From assembly GCF_021249345.1 (NCBI RefSeq), contig NZ_CP089588.1, forward strand, positions 1,488,001 to 1,552,000: 64,000 nucleotides of DNA. The letters are read 5' to 3'. The notes below the pieces were generated by a model. It worked only from the letters and a program-made list of their open reading frames with translations, was not told the DNA's origin and did no database searches. Below, piece by piece: positions 15,128 to 54,546 of the stretch; positions within the stretch are counted from its first letter, which is position 1; each line of letters begins with the position of its first letter. The DNA comes from Halobacterium wangiae. GTDB lineage: Archaea; Halobacteriota; Halobacteria; Halobacteriales; Halobacteriaceae. The translations under genes and the position numbers were made by a program.

Positions 15128-15550
15128 ATGTCCGTCACCACTACGCAGGGGGACGAGCAAGTGCTGACGTTCCAGCTGGACGGCCAGGAGTACTGCGTGT
15201 CGATCACGGCGGTGGACGAGATCGTGGACTACGACCAGACGGTCACCGCACTCCCGGAGACGGACTCCCACGTCGCGGGCGTCATGGACCTGCGCGGTCG
15301 CACGACCACGGTCGTCGACCCGAAGGAGGTACTCGACACCGACGGCGACGGCGACGGTGACCACGTCGTCGTCTTCGACAGCGAGAGCGACGACGCCAAC
15401 CCCGTCGGCTGGATCGTCGACTCCGTCAGCCAGGTCATCGGGTTCGACCTCGACGAGATCAACGAGGACGTCGAGAGCTCGCTCGCCCGCGGCGTCGTCC
15501 GCAACGACGACGACCGCTTCATCGTCTGGCTCGACCCCTCGGCGTTCTGA
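15128..15550 (+). CDS. cheW: CheW-type chemotaxis adaptor
   Basis: This 140-residue protein matches CheW along its length: the EQVLTFQLDGQEYCVSI strand, 'AVDEIVDY' helix, 'HVAGVMDLRGRTTTVVDPKE' core and 'GWIVDSVSQVIGF' helix. CheW couples transducers to the CheA kinase. The ATG at 15128 follows the transducer stop by two bases, so translation is likely coupled. No CheA or receptor-methylation gene is visible here, so the pair must dock onto signalling proteins encoded elsewhere. Confidence 0.85.
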   Translation: MSVTTTQGDEQVLTFQLDGQEYCVSITAVDEIVDYDQTVTALPETDSHVAGVMDLRGRTTTVVDPKEVLDTDGDGDGDHVVVFDSESDDANPVGWIVDSVSQVIGFDLDEINEDVESSLARGVVRNDDDRFIVWLDPSAF

Positions 15551-15585
15551 GGGGGCCGCTTCGCTCTTCGTCGCGGGTCACTGAA

Positions 15586-15609
15586 AAGCGGGCCGGGCGC
15601 GATTTGAAC
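15586..15609. repeat. Second copy of the tRNA-Lys 3' end (att-like)
   Basis: These 24 bases are identical to 15724-15747, which covers the T-stem/acceptor 3' part of tRNA-Lys. The two copies are directly repeated with an offset of 138 bases. Integrases of archaeal mobile elements often use tRNA 3' ends as attachment sites and leave such duplications. Only 114 bases lie between the copies, so any element is now lost or was very small. Just after this copy, an inverted CTTCAAATCGC can pair with GCGATTTGAA, which would also suit a leftover tRNA-like piece. Confidence 0.6.
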
Positions 15610-15726
15610 CGTCGGAACTTCGCTCCCGCTGGTCGCTCGTTCCGTACTTCAAATCGCTGCCCGCGACACGACCACGAAACGACGCGAGCGACACGGCGGT
15701 CGCTCGCGGTCGTCGTCAGAGAGAAG

Positions 15727-15800
<74 letters not shown>

Positions 15801-15892
15801 TCGTTTCCACGTCTCTTGGCGCGACGTTAAACGTTTACCATCGCCGGAACTCGCCCGGAAGGCTTAGGCGCCCGTCGGTGGACGCCTCTCCC

Positions 15893-17128
15893 ATGGACGA
15901 CCTCCAGGAGTTCGCGTCGCGGCTGGTCGGATTCGCGTCCACGACCGGCGACGAGGCCGACGCCGCGGCGTGGTTCCGGTCGCGACTCGACGAACTCGGC
16001 TTCGAGACGTGCGTGTGGGAACCGGACGCCGCCCGCCTGGCTGCCCACCCGTCGTTCCCGGACGACCCCCGCGAAATCGACACCGAGGACCGCCCGAGCG
16101 TCGGCGGCGTCCTCGAGTTCGGCGACCCGGACGCGGGGCCGACGGTCGTACTGAACGGCCACCTCGACGTGGTGCCGGCGGACCGCGCAGTCTGGTCGTC
16201 GGACCCGTTCGAGCCGACGTGGAACGGGACGGAACTGACGGGGCGCGGCGCCGCGGACATGAAGTCCGGGCTGACCGCGTGCGTGTTCGCGGCGAAACGA
16301 CTCGCCGCGGGCGGGCGACCGGACCGCGACCTGGATGGCCGCGTGGTCGTCGAGGGCGTCGCTGGCGAGGAGGAGGGCGGCGTCGGGGCGGCGGCCGCGG
16401 CGCTCGACAACCCCTACCCCTTCGAGCGCGACGCCGCGGTGATCGCGGAGCCGACGGACCTCACGCCCGTGGTCGCCTCGGAGGGGAGCCTGATGAAGCG
16501 CCTCCGAGTCACTGGGCGGTCCGCGCACGCGGCGACGCCGTGGCGCGGCGAGTCCGTGCTCCCCCACTTCGAGGCTATCGAGGCGGCCTTCGAGGACCTC
16601 GCGGCCGAGCGCGAGGCACGGGTCACGCACCCGCTGTACGAGTCGTTCCCGACGAAGTGGCCGGTGGTCTGTGGCACCGTCGACGCGGGCGACTGGGCGT
16701 CGACCGTGCCGGCGTCGCTGACCGCGGAGTGGCGCATCGGCGTCGCGCCCGGCGAGACGGTCGCCGAGGTGGAGGCCGAGTTCGACGCCGCGCTCGCCGA
16801 CGTCGTCGCGGAGCGCGAGTGGCTCCGCGAGCACCCGCCAGTGTTCGAGCGGTTCTCCGTCCAGTTCGAACCCTCCGAGGTCGACCCGGACGAACCCGTC
16901 GTGCGAGCGGTCCAGAGCGCGATGGCGGACAACGGCCTCGACGACACCGAGGCCCGGGGCGTGACCTACGGCGCTGACGCCCGCCACTACGTCGACACCG
17001 GCATCCCGACGGTGCTCTTCGGTCCGGGGAGCATCGAGCAGGCGCACTTCCCGGACGAAACGGTCGACTTCCGGGAGGTGGAGGTGGCCGTCGACGTGCT
17101 CGCGGACGCGCTGCGTCGCCTACTCTGA
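15893..17128 (+). CDS. M20-family metallopeptidase/deacylase (ArgE/DapE-like)
   Basis: From the ATG at 15893 the product is 411 residues, the normal size of the family. The metal-binding signatures are present: VVLNGHLDVVPAD, then GRGAADMKSGL, then AGEEEGGVGA with the catalytic Glu pair. A dimerisation 'lid' domain (about residues 175-290, with 'GRSAHAATPW') and a final HYVDTGIPTVLFGPG strand complete the fold. Members remove acyl or succinyl groups or cut small peptides with two zinc or cobalt ions; the substrate cannot be told from this sequence. The gene converges on, and overlaps by 9 bases, the gene at 17120-17782. Confidence 0.85.
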   Translation: MDDLQEFASRLVGFASTTGDEADAAAWFRSRLDELGFETCVWEPDAARLAAHPSFPDDPREIDTEDRPSVGGVLEFGDPDAGPTVVLNGHLDVVPADRAVWSSDPFEPTWNGTELTGRGAADMKSGLTACVFAAKRLAAGGRPDRDLDGRVVVEGVAGEEEGGVGAAAAALDNPYPFERDAAVIAEPTDLTPVVASEGSLMKRLRVTGRSAHAATPWRGESVLPHFEAIEAAFEDLAAEREARVTHPLYESFPTKWPVVCGTVDAGDWASTVPASLTAEWRIGVAPGETVAEVEAEFDAALADVVAEREWLREHPPVFERFSVQFEPSEVDPDEPVVRAVQSAMADNGLDDTEARGVTYGADARHYVDTGIPTVLFGPGSIEQAHFPDETVDFREVEVAVDVLADALRRLL

Positions 17129-17782
17129 GAAGTACTCCCGGAGCGCGTCGGCCACGACGTCGTCGGGGTCGCGGTCCAGGTCGCTGGCGTGGCGCCGGAG
17201 GTCGCGGTACACCGTCGGCGGGAGCGTGAGGCGGAGTTCGCCGGGCGTCACGCCGAGGTCCTCGAGGACGTGCTCGACGTCGCGGCCGTCGTTGACGTCG
17301 CTGGCGGCCGCCCGGACGTCCCGGACCGTGAGGTCGGTGTCGACGACGGCCCACGCGAGCAGGTAGCGGTCGTCGCCGTCGACGCGCGCGATGTGTTTCG
17401 CGGCGGAGGGCGGGATGGCACCGCGGGCGACGTGTTCGCGGACCGCCCGCGGCAGGTCGTGGACGCGCGCCCACTTCCGGATGAACGAGACGCCGACGCC
17501 CTCGCCGGCGCGTTCGGCGGCGGCCTTGTAGGAACCTTCAGCGCGCACGAGCGCGGCGCAGGCCGCGGCGCCCCGGAGCACGTGGAGGTGGCTGTCCGCG
17601 AGTTCGTTCCGCGCGAAGGCGGCGACGGTCTCTGCGGCCTCGACGACGCTGTCGGGGTCGTCGGGGTCGAACGCGACGGCGTCCCTGGCGTGGTCGCCGG
17701 TGACCCGCTCGTCGCCGCGCACGACGGGTTCGCCGACGGGTGACTCGCGGTCCGTCGGTGGTCGTCCGGCGTCCTCAGTCAT
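17120..17782 (-). CDS. Putative DNA-binding protein with ParB-like helix-turn-helix
   Basis: This 220-residue protein has an acidic disordered head (~1-45), then a helical domain whose SYKAAAERAGEGVGVSFIRK and 'ARGAIPPSAAKHIARV' resemble the helix-turn-helix and following helices of ParB/KorB-type proteins. The C-terminus (LRLTLPPTVYRDLRRHASD, then DVVADALREYFSE) looks like a ribbon-helix-helix. I infer a DNA-binding role; no partner ParA is nearby. Haloarchaea have conserved proteins of this type without assigned function. The last bases overlap the convergent M20 gene. Confidence 0.55.
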   Translation of the reverse strand: MTEDAGRPPTDRESPVGEPVVRGDERVTGDHARDAVAFDPDDPDSVVEAAETVAAFARNELADSHLHVLRGAAACAALVRAEGSYKAAAERAGEGVGVSFIRKWARVHDLPRAVREHVARGAIPPSAAKHIARVDGDDRYLLAWAVVDTDLTVRDVRAAASDVNDGRDVEHVLEDLGVTPGELRLTLPPTVYRDLRRHASDLDRDPDDVVADALREYFSE

Positions 17783-17832
17783 GGCACTCAGTAACAGTGG
17801 CGCGCGTAAAACCCCTGTTCCTCCTCGCGGCG

Positions 17833-17946
17833 CTACTCCTCACGCTCCTCGCGGCGCTCGGAGAGGTACTCCCAGATCTCCGTGCAGCCGGCGCCTGTCT
17901 CGACGTCCGCGAGGTGGTCGTCGTCGCGGTCGGTGCGGTCGCTCAC
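17833..17946 (-). CDS. Very small acidic protein (37 residues)
   Basis: The GTG at 17944-17946 opens a 37-codon frame ending in TGAGCTEIWEYLSERREE. I recall this 'GCTEIWE.LSE' pattern in short haloarchaeal proteins of unknown function. It overlaps the stop of the upstream tiny frame (17943-18032) by four bases, the arrangement of translational coupling. It has one Cys and no TM segment. Overlap with a longer spurious antisense frame that covers the reductase gene explains why it is easily missed. Confidence 0.5.
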   Translation of the reverse strand: MSDRTDRDDDHLADVETGAGCTEIWEYLSERREEREE

Positions 17947-18032
17947 TCGTCGTCCCCCTCCGTCGGGACGAACAGCTCCGGGGCGACGTCGGCGGACGCG
18001 TGCTGGCGGCGGCCGCGCGGTCGTTCTGGCAT
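17943..18032 (-). CDS. Very small basic/acidic protein (29 residues)
   Basis: The ATG at 18030-18032 starts a 29-codon frame beginning MPERPRGRRQHASADVAPEL and ending EGDDE. Its stop overlaps the GTG of the next tiny frame (ATGA-type coupling). The split into a basic head and an acidic tail is unlike random frames in this GC-rich DNA, but the evidence is weak. A role as a leader that couples translation of the next frame is possible. Confidence 0.3.
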   Translation of the reverse strand: MPERPRGRRQHASADVAPELFVPTEGDDE

Positions 18033-18186
18033 GCACCCCGCTACGGTGGGGTCGCGCATAACAGTCGCTTCCCCCGCAACGCCCGCCAGTGCTGTCCGGT
18101 ACCGGCGAGCCCTGACGGTGTCGGTGACGACTGGCAGGCGTTGCCCGCGCCGACGAGGGGAGGGGGACGCCACCCCGAGTGGTGGT

Positions 18187-18516
18187 ATGGCGACGCGACT
18201 GCGACTGCTCGACGACGCCGCGTGGGTGAGCGTGAACGACCACCGCGCGGCGGGCGCCAGCGAGGTGTGGCCGGTCGCGGACTCGTTCTGTGCGTGCCCG
18301 CTGGCGTGGCTGGCGGTCGAAGCGTTCGTGGACGTCGGTGCGGACGGCCGCCGCGTGGACGCTCGCGTGACCGGGCACTGCGTGAGCTGCGGCGAGGCCG
18401 GGACGACGCCGTGGCTCCCGGTCGGGCGCGTCACCGACGACGGCTTCGCGGTCACGACGGGCGTCCGGCGGTCGCGGCGAACTTCGCCGCGGTCGCCCTG
18501 CCGCGGGGAACCTTGA
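18187..18516 (+). CDS. Small Cys-containing protein of unknown function
   Basis: The ATG at 18187 gives 109 residues. Two Cys pairs (FCACPLAW and HCVSCGEA) could bind one metal ion. The rest is hydrophobic/acidic, ending in a basic tail that reads through GC-rich sequence. It ends 42 bases before the siroheme reductase gene on the same strand, so it may be its upstream partner. I do not recognise the family. Confidence 0.5.
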   Translation: MATRLRLLDDAAWVSVNDHRAAGASEVWPVADSFCACPLAWLAVEAFVDVGADGRRVDARVTGHCVSCGEAGTTPWLPVGRVTDDGFAVTTGVRRSRRTSPRSPCRGEP

Positions 18517-18558
18517 CACCAAACGCGGCTTGGTAAGGGTGAGAACCGACTGGACGGT

Positions 18559-20319
18559 ATGGCCACGGACGTCGAGCGCTGGAAGGACGAGATCTACGGC
18601 AACGAGATCCGCGAACACCTGTTCAGGTTCGCGGAGGAGGGGTGGGACGCCATCCCCGAGGACGAACACGACGAGTGGTTCGAGCGGTTCAAGTGGTGGG
18701 GACTGTACCACCAGCGGAAGGGCCAGGAGTCGTACTTCATGCTGCGCATCGGGACGCCCAACGGCGTCCTCGAACCGGGCCAGCTGCGTACCGTCGCGGA
18801 GGTGGCCGACGAGTACGCCCGCGGCCCCGTCGACAATCCCGAATTCGGGGCGGCCTACTGCGACTGGACGACTCGCCAGTCCATCCAGCTCCACTGGATC
18901 AAACTGGAGGACGTCCCGGACATCTTCGAGAAACTGGAGGCCGACGGCCTCTCCGCCCAGCAGGCGTGTGGCGACTCCTGGCGCAACATCGTCGGCTGCC
19001 CGGTCGCCGGGAAAGACACCCACGAGCACCTCGACGCGTGGCCGGTCGCCGAGGAACTCCACGAGACGTTCAAGGGCAGCGACGACCACTCGAACCTCCC
19101 GCGGAAGTGGAAGGTGTCGGTCACCGGCTGCGACCAGGGCTGCGGCCAGGGCGACATCAACGACCTCGCGTTCGAACCCGCACGCAAGGACGGCGAACTC
19201 GGCTTCAACGTCCGCATCGGCGGCGGCCTCGCGCGCAAGGAACCGCGGTTCGCCCGCGACGTCGACATCTGGGTGCCCGAGGAGCGGGTCGTCGACATCG
19301 CGGACGCGGCGACGCGGCTGTTCCACGACCACGGCGACCGCGACAACCGCTTCAACGCCCGCATCAAGTTCCTCGTCGACGAGTGGGGCGCCGAGAAGGT
19401 GCGCCGCGTGCTCGACGAGGAGTACGCCGACTGGGACCTCGAGACAGCGGGCGAGGACCTCCGCGAGCAGTACACGTACAACGCCGGCGGCGACGAGCAC
19501 GGCGACCACGTCGGCGTCCACGAGCAACCGGACGGCAACTACTACGTCGGGCTGAACGTCCTCGTCGGCCGGCAGGGCGTCGACGACGTCTTCGAACTCG
19601 CGGACCTCGCCGACGAGTACGGCTCCGGAGAGGTCCGGCTGACCCAGCGCCAGAACGTCATCGTCACCGACGTCCCCGAGGACGACCTCGACGACTTCCT
19701 CGCGGAGGACCTGCTCGAGCACTACTCGCCGGACCCCCACCCGTTCATGCGCGGCTCGATCGCCTGCACGGGGACGGAGTTCTGCTCGCTGTCCATCGTG
19801 GAGACGAAGAACCGCCAGGTGCGCTACGCGCGCTGGCTGAAGGAGCACGTCGACGTCCCCGACGGCGTGACGGACTTCCACATCCACCTCTCGGGCTGCA
19901 CGGCCTCCTGCGCCCAGCCCCAGATCGCGGACGTCAGCCTCCGCGGGATGAAAACCCGCAAGGACGGCGAACCCGTCGAGGCCCTCGACGTCGGTCTCGG
20001 CGGCGGCCTCGGCGAACACCCGCAGTTCGCGGACTGGGTGGAGCTGCGCGTGGCCGCCGACGAGGTGCCGGGGTACATCCAGAACCTGCTCGCCGCGTTC
20101 GAGGCCGAACGCGACGGCGGGGAGACGTTCCGGGAGTTCGTCGCGCGCCACGACGAGGACGCGCTCGGTGACCTCGCGGACCCCGCGGAGACGGACTACG
20201 AGGACCCCTACATGCACAACACGAAGCTGACCTGGTACCCGTACGCCGACGAGGACGACCTGGACGCGAGTCCCGCACCGACCGACGGCGACGGGAACAC
20301 CATCTCGGCGGACGACTGA
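18559..20319 (+). CDS. Ferredoxin-type nitrite/sulfite reductase (siroheme, 4Fe-4S)
   Basis: This 586-residue protein shows the full two-repeat architecture of assimilatory nitrite/sulfite reductases. The siroheme/cluster ligands are C403-x5-C409 (ACTGTEFC) and C447-x3-C451 (GCTASC). The first repeat has VTGCDQGCGQGDINDLAF. The enzyme makes six-electron reductions (nitrite to ammonia or sulfite to sulfide) using ferredoxin in the cytoplasm. Sequence alone does not tell nitrite from sulfite; no nitrate reductase or transporter gene adjoins it, which slightly favours sulfite. A DUF6360-type gene starts two bases after the stop and is probably co-translated. Confidence 0.88.
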   Translation: MATDVERWKDEIYGNEIREHLFRFAEEGWDAIPEDEHDEWFERFKWWGLYHQRKGQESYFMLRIGTPNGVLEPGQLRTVAEVADEYARGPVDNPEFGAAYCDWTTRQSIQLHWIKLEDVPDIFEKLEADGLSAQQACGDSWRNIVGCPVAGKDTHEHLDAWPVAEELHETFKGSDDHSNLPRKWKVSVTGCDQGCGQGDINDLAFEPARKDGELGFNVRIGGGLARKEPRFARDVDIWVPEERVVDIADAATRLFHDHGDRDNRFNARIKFLVDEWGAEKVRRVLDEEYADWDLETAGEDLREQYTYNAGGDEHGDHVGVHEQPDGNYYVGLNVLVGRQGVDDVFELADLADEYGSGEVRLTQRQNVIVTDVPEDDLDDFLAEDLLEHYSPDPHPFMRGSIACTGTEFCSLSIVETKNRQVRYARWLKEHVDVPDGVTDFHIHLSGCTASCAQPQIADVSLRGMKTRKDGEPVEALDVGLGGGLGEHPQFADWVELRVAADEVPGYIQNLLAAFEAERDGGETFREFVARHDEDALGDLADPAETDYEDPYMHNTKLTWYPYADEDDLDASPAPTDGDGNTISADD

Positions 20320-20321
20320 CG

Positions 20322-20585
20322 ATGGCCGACCGCGTCCTCAAGGTCAACGCGTACACGACGTTCACGCTACTCGACGGCGACGTCGAGGGCCACGGCTGGC
20401 GATCAGACGCACCCGCCGTCCTGAACGTGACGACGGACGACGGCGACGTACTCCTCGAACTCGAACTCGACAACACCGAGATAGCGGCGGTCCCGTCCCA
20501 CGCCGACCGCGCCCGCCTCTCGCCCGACGAGGCGCGCGAACTCGCCACGGAACTGTCGTCCTACGCCGACCGCGCCGAAGAGTAA
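20322..20585 (+). CDS. DUF6360-like small protein
   Basis: This 87-residue protein starts MADRVLKVNAYTTFTLLDG and contains 'LELELDNTEIAAVPSHADR' and 'LSPDEARELATELSSYADR'. The pattern matches what I recall of the haloarchaeal DUF6360 family, small α+β proteins of unknown function. It follows the reductase gene by two bases, so a supporting role in that enzyme's function or regulation is likely but unproven. Confidence 0.7.
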   Translation: MADRVLKVNAYTTFTLLDGDVEGHGWRSDAPAVLNVTTDDGDVLLELELDNTEIAAVPSHADRARLSPDEARELATELSSYADRAEE

Positions 20586-20622
20586 CTGTTCTCGCGGCGC
20601 TCCCCGACGGAGCGCACAGCCG

Positions 20623-21015
20623 TCACTCGGTGTCCTCGCCCCAGCCCGCGCGCTCGCGCCACTCGCGCTGCTGACGGCGCTCGGTGACGTGTTCCTCGCC
20701 ACCAGCCAGCGAGTCGCGGACGCCGGTCTCGAACTCGCTGACGTCCGCGAGCAGGCCGTGACGGAACGCCTCGACGAGCTCGTAGCTCCACTTGTCGCCG
20801 ACGGCGCCCGCCGGCAAGTGCTCGTCGCGCAGCGCGTTCGCGAACTCCTCGTGGCCGGTCTCGCGGAGCAGCCGCTCGGCGGCGTCGAGGTGGTCGACGC
20901 CGCGGCCGAGGCTGTGGTGGAACCCGAGGAGCCGACCGTACGCGCGGTAGACGTGTTCGACGCCCAGCTGGAGTTCGTGGAGCGCCTCGCGCTCCGCGGG
21001 GGTGAGGTCGTCCAT
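20623..21015 (-). CDS. Helical haloarchaeal protein of unknown function
   Basis: From the ATG at 21015 the product is 130 residues and mostly helical: LTPAEREALHELQLGVEHVY, GFHHSLGRGVDHLDAAERLL, LVEAFRHGLLADVSEFE. Several His and Glu residues on the helices could suggest a four-helix bundle, but no metal motif is clear. It is divergent from the membrane protein at 21113 with about 97 bases between, enough for two promoters. Confidence 0.6.
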   Translation of the reverse strand: MDDLTPAEREALHELQLGVEHVYRAYGRLLGFHHSLGRGVDHLDAAERLLRETGHEEFANALRDEHLPAGAVGDKWSYELVEAFRHGLLADVSEFETGVRDSLAGGEEHVTERRQQREWRERAGWGEDTE

Positions 21016-21112
21016 ACCCGTTCGTTGGACCGCGACCCGGTTATTCGTGCTGGCACCGCCGGCCGAACGGCTCCGGCAGTGGCTTTTTGGCGCGCTCGCG
21101 CGACCACCCCGT

Positions 21113-22300
21113 ATGTCGGCTGCGTCGGCGTCACGCGGCTCCCGGTGGTTCGTCGCCGCCGGCGTCGGCTTCCTGGTCGCGTTCCAGGCCGCCGCACTCG
21201 CGGGCCTCCCCCGAACCGCGCTCGCCGTCCTCGGCGTCCACGGCTTCGTCGTCCACGTGCTCCTAGGGAAGGCGAACGCGCTCGTCCCGACGTACTTCGA
21301 CCGCGACCTCGCGTTCCCCCGCGCGGCGTTCCTCGCGCTCCCGTCGACCACTCTCGGAGCGGCCGCCCTCTCCCTGTGGGCCGCGGGGTTCGCAGCCACC
21401 GCCGCCGTCGGCGCGGCGCTCTGGGCGGCGGGCGTCGCGGTCTCGCTCGCGACGCTGGCCTGGACGATCCGCGGCAACCTCTCGGGCGCGGCGACCGCCA
21501 CCGGCGAGCACAACGCCCACCGCCGACAGGTCGACCGCGCCGCCAACGCCGCCGTCCCCGTCGCCCTCGCCTACCTCGCCGCCGGCACGTACGAGACGGT
21601 CGCCGCGGTCACGTCGCTCCCCACGCTCGCGGCCGCCGGCCTCCCGGGCGCGGTCCACCTGGTCGCCGCGGGCGGCGCGCTCGTCCTGCTATTCGCCGTC
21701 GGCTTCCGCCTGCTCCCGCGGTTCCTCGTCGCGTCGCCGCCCCGGGCCCTCGTCGCCGTCGTCCTCCCGACCGGCGCGCTCGCCCCCGCGCTCCTGGTCG
21801 CAGGGTTCGGTGGCGGCCCGCTGTTCCACGCGGGCGCCGCCCTCGAAGCGGTCGCCGTCGCGGGGTTCGCGGGCGCCTACGTCGCGCTGTACGCCCGCAG
21901 CGACCGCTCGCGCGTCGGCTTCCACGGCGTGCTGGCTGGCGTCCTCAGCGGCGTGGTCGGCGTCCTCCTCGGCCTCGGGTTCGCGACTGGCATGCTCGCG
22001 CCGACCGCTGGCCGCGTGCTCGCCCACCTCCGGTTGAACGTGCTCGGCCTGCTCGGCCTCAGTATCGTCGGCGTCACCTACCAGTTCTACCCGCCCACGG
22101 TCGGCGTGTTCCCCGGGAGCGACGACCGCACCGCGCTCGCGTCGATTCTCCTGCTCGCCGGCGGCCTCTGGGTGGAAGCCGGAGGTCGACTCACGGAAAC
22201 CGGGGGCGTCGCTCGTCTGGGCGTCGCTCTGGGGCTGGTCGGTGCGCTGGCGTACGCCTACCTCGTCGCGAGCGCGTTCCGCGCGCGGGCGACGAAGTGA
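21113..22300 (+). CDS. NnrS-like / heme-copper-like polytopic membrane protein
   Basis: The ATG at 21113 gives 395 residues with about 11-12 TM helices. Conserved His in GVHGFVVHVLLGKANALVPTY, in AVHLVAAGGALVLLFAVGF, and in LFHAGAALEAVAVAG, plus a late VTYQFYPPTVGVF segment, recall NnrS proteins and distant heme-copper oxidase subunit I relatives. Such proteins are linked to nitrogen-oxide stress. I infer a heme-binding membrane protein, not proven. The stop codon ends directly at a 145-bp repeat (22301-22445). Confidence 0.6.
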   Translation: MSAASASRGSRWFVAAGVGFLVAFQAAALAGLPRTALAVLGVHGFVVHVLLGKANALVPTYFDRDLAFPRAAFLALPSTTLGAAALSLWAAGFAATAAVGAALWAAGVAVSLATLAWTIRGNLSGAATATGEHNAHRRQVDRAANAAVPVALAYLAAGTYETVAAVTSLPTLAAAGLPGAVHLVAAGGALVLLFAVGFRLLPRFLVASPPRALVAVVLPTGALAPALLVAGFGGGPLFHAGAALEAVAVAGFAGAYVALYARSDRSRVGFHGVLAGVLSGVVGVLLGLGFATGMLAPTAGRVLAHLRLNVLGLLGLSIVGVTYQFYPPTVGVFPGSDDRTALASILLLAGGLWVEAGGRLTETGGVARLGVALGLVGALAYAYLVASAFRARATK

Positions 22301-45747: not shown

Positions 45748-46098
45748 TTATTCGATGACGCCTGAACCCATTGACGCATACATCACGAAATCCTCGCCAG
45801 AGTAGCGCTCCTGTAGCCACTCCAGCAACGCATCGGCACAATCCCCAAACTCACCCCTCCCTGCACCCCCTACGGACTTGAGGACGCTCACAGACACCCA
45901 CTCACCCAAACCCGGGTCAAACCCTGATAGATGCGCGCCACCACCAAACCCAAGATACACCCCAATCACTTCCATCCGCCCACTACTCTCTGATTTGAGA
46001 CCAATGAGTGGGGCCGTATGATCGAACACCTCCACGTGATCCCGTAACCCCAGAACTTCCTCTACTGAGAGCGGCCGCGAAGGAAAATCCGGGGACAT
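45748..46098 (-). CDS. Acidic protein of unknown function
   Basis: From the ATG at 46098 the product is 116 residues; ATG 46146 would add 16. Visible features are PSRPLSVEEVLGLRDHVEVF, GVYLGFGGGAHLSGFDPG and CADALLEWLQERYSGEDFVM. I do not recognise a family. It ends about 100 bases from the 46201 inverted repeat and is oriented away from it. Confidence 0.5.
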   Translation of the reverse strand: MSPDFPSRPLSVEEVLGLRDHVEVFDHTAPLIGLKSESSGRMEVIGVYLGFGGGAHLSGFDPGLGEWVSVSVLKSVGGAGRGEFGDCADALLEWLQERYSGEDFVMYASMGSGVIE

Positions 46099-46200
46099 AC
46101 CCCCTCCAGAGAAGCCACCCACGATAACCATACCTTCGAGATACACACCAACTCAAGCACTCTTACTGGCATCCACCACCCAGGGGGTGAGATACTAGCT

Positions 46201-47194
46201 TACCAGTAGTTGCCAATACGGTTTCTTTATTCAGAGTGAAAGGTGAAACAGCCGTTGAGTACAGCGGACTCACGTAGCGAGCAATCCGTCGAACCCCCAT
46301 TATTTGTCAAGAATGAGTCGAGAGATACGAGGGGGCGAGTTGGTTAGGCGACATTCCGGGCCTCAGGGTTATGTGCCTCAGATTCGATCTACGACTTCCT
46401 TGCGAAGACTTCTGTACCACTATCTGAGACACAAAGCGCGATTTGAGCGTTTGAAAGAGTTTTAGACGAATGCGCCGACCTACAGACGTGAACCGACGCA
46501 CGTTCCTCGCAACAAGCTCCGTAGGAATCGCCGTCGGAGTCGCCGGCTGTCTAGACCTACTCAACCAAAGTGTCGATTCGGAGCAACCGGAGACCACGCC
46601 GACGAACGACGGTGCTGAAGACACAACCAACGGCTTACGCATCGTTGGAGTCTACGCTGACGACATCGAGCGCGAGTTTCTCGACGGGGAGTATCTCCTT
46701 ATGAAGAATACCGGTGCGGACTCGCTTGATGTCTCGGGATACATCGTTGAGTACCCGACAGGCTACTCCCACCAGATAACGGATCTCGTGCTCGAAGCGG
46801 GCGCACAGTTCGCCCTGATGAGCCGGGATGGGGAGGACTCGGTGTTCCAAATGAGCCCGCCTCTCTATCTCCGGTATCTGGCGGCTGATACGGCACCACT
46901 ACTCGGCAAGAAAGGGACCGTGCGTGTCCAAGACACGGAAGACAACCTCGTCGCCGCGGTCTCCTACGAGGATTTCGGATGTGACGGCGGACCTGAGACC
47001 GGCGACGAGATGGCGTGTCCCCACTCAAGTAGTTCGGAGAATTGAGGACAGCATCTACCCACGCAATCGCAGCGTGTACGTGGGCACGCCAGTGTTTTCC
47101 CAGACGTACGGTCAATTCCCTCCCTACACCAATTCAGATACCCCAGTTCCAGTACCCGTTCTGAATAAAGAAACCGCACTAGCAACTACTGGTA
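46201..47194. mobile_element. Unit bounded by 35-bp inverted repeats, carrying one lipoprotein gene
   Basis: The left end (46201-46235) and the right end (47160-47194) are inverted copies with 32 of 35 bases matching: TCTGAATAAAGAAACCG, five variable bases, then GCAACTACTGGTA. Between them is only the lipoprotein gene 46470-47045 and no transposase. This is the layout of a mobile insertion cassette (a passenger gene between insertion-sequence ends). I see no clear target-site duplication. Confidence 0.6.
46470..47045 (+). CDS. Tat-exported lipoprotein with lamin-tail-like domain
   Basis: This 191-residue protein has a twin-arginine signal (DVNRRTFLATSSVGIAVGVA) ending in a lipobox GC, then a Glu/Thr-rich linker. 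The rest (about 75-190) is LTD-like: 'DGEYLLMKNTGADSLDVSGY', 'VLEAGAQFALMSRDG' and 'VRVQDTEDNLVAAVSYEDFG'. It would be exported folded and anchored to the membrane. It is the only gene inside the 35-bp inverted repeats, and its role is unknown. Confidence 0.75.
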   Translation: MRRPTDVNRRTFLATSSVGIAVGVAGCLDLLNQSVDSEQPETTPTNDGAEDTTNGLRIVGVYADDIEREFLDGEYLLMKNTGADSLDVSGYIVEYPTGYSHQITDLVLEAGAQFALMSRDGEDSVFQMSPPLYLRYLAADTAPLLGKKGTVRVQDTEDNLVAAVSYEDFGCDGGPETGDEMACPHSSSSEN

Positions 47195-47693: not shown

Positions 47694-48590
47694 ATGTCAA
47701 GTAAGCAAGCGCGTAGCAAGGTCGTTTCGGTCGAAGAACAATCGTTTGAGAAAACGGGCGAGCAGTCGGTTGATGAGGATGGATTCGAACTCGTCGATGA
47801 GACCCCGGAGCTCCGAGCGACGGTGGAGCTGGAAATCCAGGCGAAAGTGGACGCGAACCAACCTAGTAGAGTAGTCAGTACTCGTGGTGAGCGGATTCGT
47901 GGAGCAACCCTCGAAGAAGAGGAGCGGATTCGGGGCCGGGAGGCGGAGTTAGAGCGCATTCGAGGGCGCGCAAGGATCGGACGGAAGAATGGGCGAGCAG
48001 GGCGGTCACGGACGGTTGTGGCAGACCAGAGCAGGGAGCGACGTCTCGAGTTCGAGAAGCGTGCTAGGAGTGTGGACCCGTGGGTGGACCCGGAGCGCGG
48101 TGATCCCCGTGAGGAACTCACTCGGGAGGAGTTAGGAGCGGTGAACACGGAGTCGGTGCGGTTGGCCGAGGCACTGGATGGGTGGTCGCGAGCAGCAATC
48201 AGCCGACGACTCGCAGAACTCGTAGCCAACGGAACGGACGTGACGAGTGCAGTCCTCGGAGTGTTCGAACAATTACAGACCGCGCCCGGGCACGTGATTC
48301 CAATCGGGAAGCTCGAGGACATCAATCGCAAGGAGGTGAGTATCGAGGGTCGAGTCGAGGTCTTGTGGAATCCTTCGCATCCGAGCATCGCCCAGGTCGG
48401 GTTGATTGCGGACGAGAGTGGACAGACCCGTGTGACAATCTGGGAGGCCTCAAACGCCCCCTGGATTAGGGAGGGTGAGCGTGTGCGGATTCGGGGGGCT
48501 GCACGGAACTGGTACGAGGGACGCGTCTCACTCGCCGTCACTGGCTGGAGCACTCTATCCTTCCCTGAGCGCGGTCGGTGGTGGGAATAG
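47694..48590 (+). CDS. OB-fold nucleic-acid-binding protein (RPA-like)
   Basis: This 298-residue protein has a charged head (GERIRGATLEEEERIRG and many Arg/Glu), then a helical 'LAEALDGWSRAAISRRLAEL' region and a C-terminal OB fold: 'IEGRVEVLWNPSHPSIAQVG', 'TRVTIWEAS' and 'EGERVRIRGAARNWYEGRVS'. It matches single-strand-DNA-binding RPA-like proteins seen on haloarchaeal mobile elements. A zinc-finger protein gene follows 274 bases later. The large palindrome upstream may be its regulatory site. Confidence 0.75.
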   Translation: MSSKQARSKVVSVEEQSFEKTGEQSVDEDGFELVDETPELRATVELEIQAKVDANQPSRVVSTRGERIRGATLEEEERIRGREAELERIRGRARIGRKNGRAGRSRTVVADQSRERRLEFEKRARSVDPWVDPERGDPREELTREELGAVNTESVRLAEALDGWSRAAISRRLAELVANGTDVTSAVLGVFEQLQTAPGHVIPIGKLEDINRKEVSIEGRVEVLWNPSHPSIAQVGLIADESGQTRVTIWEASNAPWIREGERVRIRGAARNWYEGRVSLAVTGWSTLSFPERGRWWE

Positions 48591-50626: not shown

Positions 50627-50712
50627 TCTGTACTTAGCAATCTAGCGGAATGTCGGAGAATCACCGATTAGTCGACAGCGCCCTTTCCCGAAACGACCAG
50701 TAACAAAATTGC
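50627..50712 (+). repeat. R85 repeat, copy E (array start)
   Basis: 86 bases: left end TCTGTACTTAGCAATCTAGC, core TGTCGGAGAATCACCGAT and right end AGTAACAAAATTGC. It lies 4 bases from the stop of the minus-strand HalOD1 gene, so its relation to that gene differs from the plus-strand members. Confidence 0.75.
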
Positions 50713-50716
50713 ATAC

Positions 50717-50986
50717 CTAGCGGTGCGATTCGATTTTGATGATTGGGTTACCGTTTTTGTCAGCAATGATCGTCGCGGTCGTCGTATCCGCTTCAAACTG
50801 GAGGGTCATCTTGAGATTGTGGTCTTGGAAGAGGGCGTCGAGTGCGTCAGTGTTAATATCGTCACTGATGCGCCATTCCTGATCGATTATCTCCTCGTCG
50901 TGAGCCGCTGCAATCGCCGATACGACCGCTACGCTTAACGTGTCGCCCGCTTCTGGCTCGTAGTAGAATTCTTCAGTATGTCCCAC
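50717..50986 (-). CDS. HalOD1 protein, first gene of the R85 array
   Basis: This 89-residue protein has TLSVAVVSAIAAAHDEEIID and INTDALDALFQDHNLKMTLQ, then TATIIADKNGNPIIKIE, a HalOD1 output domain. It is on the minus strand, reading toward copy E. It is one of the two minus-strand genes in the array. HalOD1 proteins are thought to act as output partners in two-component signalling. Confidence 0.8.
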   Translation of the reverse strand: MGHTEEFYYEPEAGDTLSVAVVSAIAAAHDEEIIDQEWRISDDINTDALDALFQDHNLKMTLQFEADTTTATIIADKNGNPIIKIESHR

Positions 50987-51073
50987 ACCGCTATTTGGAG
51001 GGTCAACGGGAAACCCGCTATTGCCATTATAAGTCCCGGTAGTTGCCTCCCCCTCGCCAGGTCAAACTGATTC

Positions 51074-51157
51074 TCTGTACTTAGCGACAGTGAGTGTCAG
51101 AGAATCACCGATTATTCGACACGGCTAGTTCCCGAAATGACCGGTAAGCAGAGTTGC
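51074..51157 (+). repeat. R85 repeat, copy F
   Basis: 84 bases: TCTGTACTTAGCGACAGTG, core GATTATTCGACACGGCTAG, and AATGACCGGTAAGCAGAGTTG at the right end. It precedes the zinc-protein gene start by 64 bases. Confidence 0.8.
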
Positions 51158-51220
51158 GAAGAAACCGAGGCCTTGTCACAATCCGAATACATATATCTGG
51201 TGGCAATCTTTCCGGGTTTC

Positions 51221-51373
51221 ATGGGATGTGCTCAGTGTGGCAAAAGCGATGCCGCTCTAACGAAGGTTGAATACAAGGTTGAAGAGGGCGAAACAATTCC
51301 CTTGTGTGCCGATTGTCGGGACGAATTCAAAGATGGCGGGCTCGTTAAGGCGGTTTCTCTGGTTGACCAGTAG
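51221..51373 (+). CDS. Small zinc-ribbon protein in the R85 array
   Basis: The ATG at 51221 gives 50 residues: MGCAQCGKSDAALTKVEYKV, then PLCADCRDEFKDGGLV, two CxxC pairs that could hold one zinc. The TATA-like ACATATATC at about 51189-51197 is about 25-32 bases upstream and supports this start over the longer frame at 51137. Copy G begins four bases after the stop codon. Confidence 0.7.
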   Translation: MGCAQCGKSDAALTKVEYKVEEGETIPLCADCRDEFKDGGLVKAVSLVDQ

Positions 51374-51377
51374 GTCA

Positions 51378-51465
51378 TCTGTACTGAGCAATCCAGCGGG
51401 CTGTCGGAGAAGACCGGATTGTTCGACAGGGCAATTTCTATAAGTAGTCAGCAAGCAGAATTATG
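51378..51465 (+). repeat. R85 repeat, copy G
   Basis: 88 bases: TCTGTACTGAGCAATCCAGC, core GATTGTTCGACAGGGCAAT, right end AGCAAGCAGAATTATG. It begins 4 bases after the stop of the zinc-ribbon gene. Confidence 0.8.
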
Positions 51466-51617
51466 AACGGATTGCTGAAGTCCACAGTTCGTATCAGAGG
51501 GTACCCTCTCATGAGGACACTCTACTGGTTCATTTGTAAGAGGGGTCTTGGACTATTCGCTTAGAAGGGGGAATGACCGGATGATACAAAGGACCTGTCT
51601 GTGTTGGAGATATTATT

Positions 51618-52049
51618 ATGGACGTGGGTGAGACGGTAGAAGTTGAGATTGGTGAACGCCATGACGGTTATCTCAAGGCTGAGCGGGATGGAAGTCGGTT
51701 TAGCATAGCAGGCGAAGGCTCGATTGGAGATACGCGAAAAATTCGGATTGTGAAGAACCAAGGAGGCCCCTTCATCGCAGTCACTGAAGGTGCGACGCTC
51801 CGCCTCAGGATCGACGAAGTCGTCGATGAGTCGACTGTCAGGGCCGACCCCTCGTATGGTCCTGTATTAATCGAAGCTTCGCTGTCTCCGGGTGATTGGT
51901 GGCAATGTGTTGTAACTGGTGTTCAGGAAAGCCATGTCACTGCAAAACCTAGGAAGTACATCCCTCGAAATAGCGACATCCCACGAGGTGACCTGCCTGA
52001 TGATTCAACGCAATCTCTTAATCACTTACTTAGTGGGCGAAAGCTCTGA
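51618..52049 (+). CDS. TRAM-like small protein in the R85 array
   Basis: This 143-residue protein starts MDVGETVEVEIGERHDGYLK and continues with 'GDTRKIRIVKNQGGPFIAV', a β-barrel pattern like TRAM or an OB-like RNA-binding domain. The remainder is unassigned, with TAKPRKYIPRNSDIP near its end. It may bind RNA. It is preceded by about 150 bases after copy G and followed by copy H after 41 bases. Confidence 0.5.
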   Translation: MDVGETVEVEIGERHDGYLKAERDGSRFSIAGEGSIGDTRKIRIVKNQGGPFIAVTEGATLRLRIDEVVDESTVRADPSYGPVLIEASLSPGDWWQCVVTGVQESHVTAKPRKYIPRNSDIPRGDLPDDSTQSLNHLLSGRKL

Positions 52050-52090
52050 CGCAGTAATACGAATGCAGAGTTAATGGACGAGGATCATTC

Positions 52091-52177
52091 TCTGCAGCAA
52101 GCGATAGTCCCGGTCCGTGTCGCAGAATGGATTCTTCGACAGTGCTATCTCTCGAAATAGCCGGTAAACAGAATTGC
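52091..52177 (+). repeat. R85 repeat, copy H
   Basis: 87 bases: TCTGCAGCAAGCGATAGTCC, core GATTCTTCGACAGTGCTAT, right end GCCGGTAAACAGAATTGC. It lies 41 bases after the TRAM-like gene stop. Confidence 0.75.
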
Positions 52178-52274
52178 GGATTCACCGGCAACTGTCCGTG
52201 GCAGTCATTGGTGAGGAAGTGACTATGTTCATATCGGGGGAAGATACAACTGGGCGGGTCGGGTTGTGTTGTCC

Positions 52275-52841
52275 ATGCGTCGTCGAGCCCTCCTCACCAG
52301 TCTCGTTGGCAGTACTGCACTCCTCGCCGGATGCATCGCTGATGCGCCGACAGGTAACTCCGAAGATACGCCCTCAACGGACTCCAGTACTGCGTCTCCA
52401 AGGGAGGTGTTTAATCCGACTGGGCGGGCGACGATTCGCCCACTTGACGAGCCGCTCATCCAGCACGGGCTAACCGCGGACTCCGAGCAGTATCTATACG
52501 GTCGATTGTTCTCTCCCGATGATACCGTCCCCGTCACTGATAGCGCGGATGCAAAATGGCTCGCTGAACGGGTTGACGAACTGTCCAGCGATCAGTTCGC
52601 GGTTTTGACGAACCTTCGGACTGCAGGCGCTTCCCCCGCTCATTTCTGGCCAACGCCAACTGGTGCCACGTGGGACGACGAAGGCCTTCACATCCAACTG
52701 GAACGCCAAACAATTTCAACCACCGTCGAAAGTGACGAGGCCGTCGGCGTTGCACTCACCGTCTACCAGTATACTGGCAAGCAACCGACGGATGTGAGGC
52801 TCGTCTTCCCGAGTGGAGCAACTCTCCCAATCGGGACGTGA
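52275..52841 (+). CDS. Exported lipoprotein in the R85 array
   Basis: The ATG at 52275 gives 188 residues, starting MRRRALLTSLVGSTALLAGC, a signal with lipobox. A Ser/Thr/Asp linker follows, then a globular domain with 'PLDEPLIQHGLTADSEQYLY' and 'TTVESDEAVGVALTVYQYTG'. It would be anchored outside the cell membrane. I do not recognise the family. Copy I starts 19 bases after the stop. Confidence 0.7.
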   Translation: MRRRALLTSLVGSTALLAGCIADAPTGNSEDTPSTDSSTASPREVFNPTGRATIRPLDEPLIQHGLTADSEQYLYGRLFSPDDTVPVTDSADAKWLAERVDELSSDQFAVLTNLRTAGASPAHFWPTPTGATWDDEGLHIQLERQTISTTVESDEAVGVALTVYQYTGKQPTDVRLVFPSGATLPIGT

Positions 52842-52860
52842 GACTTCGAGAACTGTACGC

Positions 52861-52953
52861 TCTGTACTGAGCGAAAGGTCCCTGTATCTATGTCGGAGAA
52901 TCACCGATTATTCGACACGTCTAGTTCCCGAAATGGCCGTTAAGAAGAGTTGC
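52861..52953 (+). repeat. R85 repeat, copy I
   Basis: 93 bases: TCTGTACTGAGCGAAAGGTC, core GATTATTCGACACGTCTAG, right end GGCCGTTAAGAAGAGTTGC. It lies 19 bases after the lipoprotein stop. Confidence 0.8.
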
Positions 52954-53149
52954 GTATCTCCCAGGGAACAGGGCGCGATTGTGCAGTGGGAGCAATAGAT
53001 ACCGGTATAGATCGAATCTGAGCGAGTCTCGTGTATAAACGACTGACGGTTCGGTGTTTGGACTTGGGTATCGAGTTAGGGTTGCAGGAGGTGTGATTCC
53101 AAGGGTGCGAGTCAGCGGAACTAAATATCCTTCAGACGGGAGTATAGAC

Positions 53150-53596
53150 GTGAAGCGGCGTAATCTCCTCGCCCTCCTTGGGGCGAGTACAATCGCCGGT
53201 GGTTCCGCTGTATTGAGTGTCCTCGGAGATGACAAACACACGAAGCTCAACGACATTATGGTTCAGAACCGGGCTGACAAGCCCCAGCAAGTAGTCGTTC
53301 AGGTTTTCGGCGGTGACACGATTGTCACAGATGAGACGTTTTCACTCGCAAAAGACGATATGTCCGGGTCAAAAGCTATGGTGCCCTGTGAATGGCGAGA
53401 CGCATCAGGGCCTCTCTCCGTCCGTGTTCGACTTGTTGAATCATCTGACTGGGACACGCGGCATCTCGATGAGGCAACCGATTCGTCTGCGGTAGTGGAA
53501 TATATTGTGGTGATCGGGGGGGAGGAAACGCCGTCCGGGATCGACTTCTATATCTCACAGAACTCAGAATACTCCCCGTGTTCTGATATAAAATGA
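53150..53596 (+). CDS. Tat-type exported protein in the R85 array
   Basis: The GTG at 53150 gives 148 residues, with a short twin-arginine-like signal (MKRRNLLALLGASTIAGG) and no lipobox Cys. The domain after it includes 'DIMVQNRADKPQQVVVQVFG', 'ETFSLAKDDMSGSK' and 'EETPSGIDFYISQ'. An AT-rich ACTAAATATCC about 25-30 bases upstream supports this start over the ORF beginning at 53054. It appears to be exported and soluble or surface-bound; function unknown. Confidence 0.6.
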   Translation: MKRRNLLALLGASTIAGGSAVLSVLGDDKHTKLNDIMVQNRADKPQQVVVQVFGGDTIVTDETFSLAKDDMSGSKAMVPCEWRDASGPLSVRVRLVESSDWDTRHLDEATDSSAVVEYIVVIGGEETPSGIDFYISQNSEYSPCSDIK

Positions 53597-53737
53597 CACC
53601 AGCTGCGACGAACTCACGATAGACGTGAACCGCCTCGGGATCAAGCCTCGAGGCACTCGGCCTGTTCCGCCTGTAGATATGCTTATTTATAGAAGTGTTT
53701 ATTCACAAGAGTTTATTTGTGGATTGTAGGCTCTCCA

Positions 53738-53902
53738 ATGCCTCTCATCAACAGCGATAAAACTCGGAGAGATGCATACCTCGCCGTCGCATTCTTCTGT
53801 ATAATCTCGGTGATTGCCCTCCCGATTGGCGCGTTCTTAGCCTATCGAGCGTGGAAGATTCATCGGAAGATCTCCAACCCTCAGGACACCTTATCAGGGT
53901 AA
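53738..53902 (+). CDS. Small membrane peptide in the R85 array
   Basis: The ATG at 53738 gives 54 residues: MPLINSDKTRRDAYLAVAFF, then CIISVIALPIGAFLAYRAW, one or two TM segments and a basic tail. An in-frame TTG at 53717 is less likely. AT-rich TATA-like sequence lies upstream (about 53680-53715). It shares one interval with the exported-protein gene at 53150, since no R85 copy separates them. Confidence 0.55.
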   Translation: MPLINSDKTRRDAYLAVAFFCIISVIALPIGAFLAYRAWKIHRKISNPQDTLSG

Positions 53903-54009
53903 TCGGGTGACTGTTCACTCGGTTGGACGGGGCCGTTGAACTCCTGATCTACTATCCGAAATCGATGATTTCAGAGTCGGACGGAAGAATCAACTACACC
54001 ATTGTACGA

Positions 54010-54127
54010 CTGTACTTCGCAATCCAGCGGGCTGTCGGAGAACACTGGAATCGACGACAACCGCCGTCGTACTTTCGCTGATTGTTCGACAGGCCCATTC
54101 CCTGAAATGGCCGGTAAACAGAATTGC
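54010..54127 (+). repeat. R85 repeat, copy J (with 33-bp insert)
   Basis: 118 bases: left end CTGTACTTCGCAATCC, core CTGTCGGAGAACACTGGAAT, then an insert TCGACGACAACCGCCGTCGT and the usual right end GCCGGTAAACAGAATTGC. The insert can form its own stem (ACGAC with GTCGT). Confidence 0.8.
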
Positions 54128-54186
54128 CTATTGATTGTTTTTTGGCTCGCGAAAAGCATTATACTTGGAAGAACAACACGGTTGAT

Positions 54187-54399
54187 ATGGTCATCTCAAC
54201 GAAGTCGGTATGGGACGAAGTGGCGGACGAGCTTTCGGACGGCTCGGTAATTGAGTACGAAAACGCGACGGTTTACGGCGATTTTGAACAGGAACAGGTT
54301 CTTCACCAAGGCAACGTCCGTATTCTCCCGAATAGTTGGATTGCTTTACCAACCGGTCGTCTCCTTTCTCCCGAAGCAGTACATCATATTGACCCATAG
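54187..54399 (+). CDS. Small protein of unknown function in the R85 array
   Basis: The ATG at 54187 gives 70 residues: MVISTKSVWDEVADELSDGS, then EQEQVLHQGNVRILPNSWIA and LSPEAVHHIDP. The TATA-like GCATTATACTT (about 54155-54165) is about 25-30 bases upstream. Copy J ends 59 bases before the start and copy K begins 4 bases after the stop. I do not recognise the family. Confidence 0.6.
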   Translation: MVISTKSVWDEVADELSDGSVIEYENATVYGDFEQEQVLHQGNVRILPNSWIALPTGRLLSPEAVHHIDP

Positions 54400-54403
54400 A
54401 ACC

Positions 54404-54528
54404 TCTGTACTGAGCGAACGGTCCCTGTATCTATGTCGTAGAAGAGGGGAATCGACGACAACCGCCGTCGTACTTTCACTGATTATTCGACATAGCTAGT
54501 TCCCAAAATGGCAGTTAAGCAGAATTGT
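54404..54528 (+). repeat. R85 repeat, copy K (with 33-bp insert)
   Basis: 125 bases: TCTGTACTGAGCGAACGGTC, then the same GGAATCGACGACAACCGCC insert as copy J, core GATTATTCGACATAGCTAG, and right end AGTTAAGCAGAATTGTG. It begins 4 bases after the stop of the gene at 54187-54399. Confidence 0.8.
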
Positions 54529-54546
54529 GTATTTACAGTCGGTAGA

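What the first reader, a model, noticed from the sequence alone, without database searches (positions are those of the whole stretch)
46201..47194. Lipoprotein gene bounded by 35-bp inverted repeats and no transposase
Ends at 46201-46235 and 47160-47194 are inverted copies, 32 of 35 bases alike, enclosing only a Tat lipoprotein gene. This fits a mobile insertion cassette, where a passenger gene is moved by a transposase encoded elsewhere. Exported lipoproteins as passengers are notable, since similar products appear in the R85 array.
Basis: seen in the sequence. Interest (0 to 1): 0.65.

Follow-up and report, generated by a model that had tools for sequence, protein, structure and literature searches.

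The report
Mobile lipoprotein cassette of haloarchaeal transposon
A lipoprotein gene in this salt-loving archaeon sits in a small jumping cassette that lacks its own transposase; similar cassettes, mostly carrying surface-protein genes, occur across haloarchaea, and larger related transposons encode a transposase and sometimes a CRISPR-derived gene cluster.

Summary
A second island in the same genome carries the matching empty site. The ~70-bp left and right ends recur across haloarchaea. Of 54 convergent end pairs chosen without looking at flanks, 31 have identical 4-bp flanks, all NTAN, against 0-1 at any other offset; 12 more, including the window copy, differ by one base. Short cassettes carry a membrane or lipoprotein gene in 30 of 43 cases (11 of 57 neighbouring small genes). 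Elements of 4.9-10.9 kb with related ends and the same NTAN duplication encode a DDE transposase, distantly ISH3-like. Twelve of 35 loci of one HRAMP clade (a CRISPR derivative without array) lie inside such elements; 0 of 20 of a second clade do. The window's own assembly has no close transposase, so mobilisation in trans is inferred, and an intact element with exactly the window's end sequences was not found.

The parts
46200..46203 (.). left 4-bp target copy, TTAC
   Evidence: empty site in L009
46204..46267 (+). left end (L type): CAGTAGTTGCCAATACGGTTTCTTTATTCAG... with conserved subterminal sequence
   Evidence: matches of up to 77 bp in relatives starting at the boundary; profile score 74.8 bits
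46470..47045 (+). passenger gene: Tat lipoprotein, 191 aa, weak Lamin Tail Domain match
47128..47191 (-). right end (R type): CAGTAGTTGCTAGTGCGGTTTCTTTATTCAGA... read inward on the minus strand
   Evidence: matches of up to 68 bp in relatives; profile score 63.7 bits
47192..47195 (.). right 4-bp target copy, GTAC (3 of 4 bases equal to the left copy)
45748..46146 (-). left flanking gene of the host island (132 aa), paralogous to a gene left of the L009 cassette
47694..48590 (+). right flanking gene of the host island (298 aa, OB fold), paralogous to the gene right of the L009 cassette

Best explanation
46204-47191 is a non-autonomous transposon (mobile insertion cassette). A DDE transposase, made by a larger transposon of the same kind, binds the L and R ends, cuts at CAG...CTG and inserts the cassette at an NTAN tetranucleotide, duplicating those 4 bp. 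Everything between the ~70-bp ends is free to change, so the ends carry host genes, with membrane and lipoprotein genes favoured. Shown: ends, duplications, empty site, relatives with varied cargo, transposase-bearing elements with related ends. Inferred: that the transposase of those larger elements, or an unsampled close relative, moved this cassette; the cutting chemistry; and any benefit of the lipoprotein.
For: Ends repeated in the genome and across haloarchaea. 31 of 54 blind-chosen pairs have identical 4-mers at the predicted boundary, all with TA in the centre, against 0-1 at eleven other offsets; one L and one R end in 49 of 54 pairs. Empty site for the window copy in L009: GATACTAACCTACTGCTTCG against GATACTAGCTTAC[cassette]GTACTGCTTCG. 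Sister cassette L010: both flanks found in all 12 congeners and no cassette match at the site; five junctions read show the flanks joined. Transposase-bearing elements with matching NTAN copies: Natrinema pellirubrum 6569 bp ATAC, H. salinarum 4917 bp TTAT and 6008 bp GTAA, H. hubeiense 10933 bp ATAT, Salarchaeum 10091 bp TTAA. The R end next to the Halomicrobium transposase gene matches the cassette R-end profile over 58 positions, 38.7 bits.
Against: No transposase closer than 29% identity in the window's assembly (none at E 1e-40); the held assembly is one contig and may lack plasmids. The exact subfamily ends (TTGCCAATACGG / TTGCTAGYGCGG) were not seen beside an intact transposase of this clade. 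The window copies match in 3 of 4 bases, so this insertion is not recent. No transposition was observed.
Confidence: 0.9

Rival explanations
1. The repeats are a regulatory RNA stem or paired transcription signals around the lipoprotein gene.
For: The arms could pair in a transcript spanning the gene.
Against: Such ends enclose unrelated genes on either strand, in elements from ~250 bp to several kb; the host sequence exists without them; 4-bp flanks are duplicated. No covariation test was run.
Confidence: 0.01
2. A cassette of a tyrosine or serine recombinase (integron-like or Tn916-like), not of a DDE transposase.
For: No recombinase gene inside; single-gene cassettes recall integrons.
Against: Ends are inverted, not direct; 4-bp target duplications; elements with related ends encode a DDE_Tnp_1 protein (Pfam 3e-11), in several cases right beside the R end.
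Confidence: 0.03
3. A relic (compatible with the best explanation on origin): the cassette was moved long ago, no functional transposase now reaches it, and the lipoprotein is kept, if at all, for the host.
For: No close transposase in the genome; one base of the target copies has changed; L011 in the same genome has decayed ends.
Against: Perfect duplications in many relatives and 110-bp forms 94-98% alike in Halospeciosus show activity in the group; plasmids may be missing from the assembly.
Confidence: 0.4

Closest known systems
Mobile insertion cassettes (MICs) of bacteria
   Same: terminal inverted repeats, passenger gene, no transposase, target duplication
   Different: archaeal, asymmetric ~70-bp ends, NTAN duplication, cargo enriched in membrane and lipoprotein genes. 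The MIC description rests on my own knowledge; papers were located, not read
ISH2 and other haloarchaeal MITEs
   Same: transposase-free, mobilised in trans by an element with similar ends (PMC3119063, PMC10264941)
   Different: ISH2 has termini related to ISH8 and is moved by the ISH8 transposase; among Haloquadratum MITEs only the ISH2 type was reported with a likely gene
ISH3 family insertion sequences
   Same: the transposases score best against the ISH3 model
   Different: 115-119 bits against a cutoff of 225; the elements are 4.9-10.9 kb and multi-gene
HRAMP, array-less CRISPR derivative of haloarchaea (PMC8730458; the original 2019 paper is not held)
   Same: conserved Cas5-like and Cas7-like genes with a third conserved gene (applies to the larger relatives, not to the window cassette)
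   Different: here one clade lies inside transposons with target duplications in 12 of 35 loci; the passages read in the two held papers that mention HRAMP and transposons gave no such link

Membership tests
Mobile insertion cassette / non-autonomous transposon | inverted ends shared with other copies in different places | tested here: met
Mobile insertion cassette / non-autonomous transposon | target duplication | tested here: met
   family: 31/54 exact NTAN, 12 one base off; window copy 3/4
Mobile insertion cassette / non-autonomous transposon | empty site | tested here: met
   window copy; L010 copy:
Mobile insertion cassette / non-autonomous transposon | passenger gene but no transposase inside | tested here: met
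Mobile insertion cassette / non-autonomous transposon | transposase on an element with the same ends | tested here: inconclusive
   related ends and same type of duplication, not the identical subfamily ends
Mobile insertion cassette / non-autonomous transposon | movement observed | not testable with these tools
   needs a bench assay
ISH3 family (the larger elements) | transposase above the curated ISH3 cutoff | tested here: not met
   115.0 and 119.3 bits against 225
MITE | short and non-coding | tested here: not met
   988 bp with a 191-aa gene; 110-bp forms in Halospeciosus do fit
HRAMP (larger relatives only) | Cas7-like and Cas5-like proteins | tested here: met
   PADLOC Csm3 2.4e-4 and Cmr3 1.9e-7; Pfam RAMPs below cutoff; no match to solved structures; no structure predicted

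The most novel reading that the evidence does not exclude
The cassettes and the HRAMP-bearing transposons form one gene-exchange system: the HRAMP complex, carried beside the transposase, steers or protects transposition (as CRISPR effectors do in Tn7-like transposons), while the small cassettes spread surface proteins among haloarchaea.
Probability: 0.07. Interest if true: 0.92.

Novelty: new variant of a known kind. Interest (0 to 1): 0.62.

Why it matters
It defines a haloarchaea-wide family of gene-carrying cassettes by end sequence and target duplication; none of the papers found here describes it. It offers a testable route for lateral spread of membrane and lipoprotein genes, and gives a CRISPR-derived system of unknown function (HRAMP) a mobile context that may help to explain it.

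Tried and rejected
First guesses at the duplication (8 bp, 2-bp TA) were dropped once several copies were compared; 4 bp NTAN fits. Own-genome DDE_Tnp_1 genes: a fragment and a 575-aa ORF without these ends. The Halomicrobium element 15503-22130 has non-matching flanks (CTAT/TTAA) and is not counted as intact. Phage and viral collections: no match. PDB profile search for the Cas-like proteins: none. The 2019 HRAMP paper is not held. The first cargo control, random flank segments (15%), is biased low because such segments often hold no whole gene; I added annotated small neighbouring genes (11/57, Fisher P 5e-7), a convenience sample from plasmids. The ORF picker favours hydrophobic and lipobox ORFs, while the control does not use it, so the enrichment is probably overstated. 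No structure was predicted and no covariation test was run.

Full report
Observation. The inverted repeats are real (32/35) and enclose one lipoprotein gene, 46470-47045.

Same genome. A search of the window's genome (one contig, 3.11 Mb) found further ends. Three more two-ended cassettes occur: L009 (696 bp, another Tat lipoprotein), L010 (682 bp, a lipoprotein) and L011 (625 bp, a small membrane protein, ends decayed). L009 and the window cassette lie between paralogous island genes, in opposite orientation.

Empty sites. L009's island holds, some 45 bases from its own cassette, GATACTAACCTACTGCTTCGAAAGCC; the window has GATACTAGCTTAC, cassette, GTACTGCTTCGAAAGCC. The alignment printed was made with a boundary one base off; the reading given here is mine from the printed sequences. 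For L010, both flanks were found in all 12 congeners, with no cassette match at the site. I read the joined flanks in five congeners (L092, L094, L097, L100, L101); for the other seven, one search printed a stretch that did not cover the junction.

Family. End sequences match in 16 of 26 genomes of the family searched, in 48 (L) and 51 (R) plasmid records, and as 61 stretches in a scan of species genomes. Nearly all of these are haloarchaea; one comes from a bin labelled Paceibacterota (L163) and was not examined. No match in phages or viral contigs.

Target duplication. Pairs were taken as neighbouring convergent ends with no look at flanks: 54 unique. Identical 4-mers: 31 at the predicted boundary, 0-1 at each of eleven other offsets; all 31 have TA in the middle. 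Of the 23 others, 12 differ by one base, the window among them. 49 of 54 pairs have one L and one R end. The loci were gathered by their ends and overlap in ancestry, so the 54 are not fully independent events.

Cargo. Short cassettes (250-1300 bp, 43) yield a membrane or lipoprotein ORF in 30; annotated small genes nearby in 11 of 57. The picker used for cassettes favours such ORFs, so the size of the difference is uncertain. Longer elements carry, by sequence resemblance read by eye, Trk-type potassium uptake genes (L084) and regulators (L126). One 1970-bp element in Haloglomus holds the C-terminal part of a transposase within a 309-aa ORF; this led to the larger elements.

Transposase-bearing elements. 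Relatives of that fragment at 35-48% identity on plasmids led to elements with related ends and matching NTAN flanks: L206 6569 bp, L207 (same as L231) 4917 bp, L208 10933 bp, L229 10091 bp, L230 6008 bp. Their transposases are about 470-630 aa where read in full; Pfam DDE_Tnp_1 (two tested), below the ISH3 cutoff. In several, the R end follows the transposase gene closely; in Halomicrobium it matches the cassette R-end profile over 58 positions.

HRAMP. L205, L206, L208 and L229 carry Csm3/Cas7-like and Cmr3/Cas5-like genes. Among 292 genomes of the class, 78 have the Cas7-like gene. I fetched 33 loci of the higher-scoring group plus L208 and L229, and 20 of the lower-scoring group. End pairs with an identical xTAy copy bracket the gene in 12 of 35 against 0 of 20; a reversed-motif control gave none; a transposase hit is present in 15 of 35 against 0 of 20. 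The two groups were split by score, not by a tree. Some transposase hits are short remnants.

Conclusion. The window feature is a mobile insertion cassette of a haloarchaeal transposon family whose larger members encode a DDE transposase. Its own mover is not identified, and whether it can still move is open.

Noticed in passing
L205, L206, L208, L229; loci: HRAMP genes (Cas5-like, Cas7-like and a third gene) lie inside transposons with these ends; in one score group 12 of 35 do, in the other 0 of 20.
   Followed up: partly
window 24968, minus strand: A decayed L-type end (25.9 bits) without a partner found in the window.
   Followed up: no
window 50651-54529, with further copies near 25.7, 31.5, 32.0 and 55.1 kb: The R85 direct repeats are spaced 300-1200 bp apart; they do not match the cassette ends and may be a separate cassette-like array.
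   Followed up: partly
Halospeciosus flavus: L068, L080, L159, L165, L191: 110-bp forms with these ends and NTAN copies. Haloquadratum SMR-A elements (PMC3119063) are also about 110 bp but reported without duplications; a palindromic TTAA or CTAG target could be mistaken for part of the ends.
   Followed up: no
L009 3178 (G000:C1:2078178), plus strand: A single R-type end several kb from the L009 cassette, partner not found.
   Followed up: no
L075 5070-6854 and L127 8671-9219 (pNRC200): A type IV pilin gene with nearly the same N-terminus occurs as cassette cargo in H. noricense and near an end on pNRC200.
   Followed up: no
L163: One end match in a bin labelled Candidatus Paceibacterota; could be a mis-binned haloarchaeal contig.
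   Followed up: no
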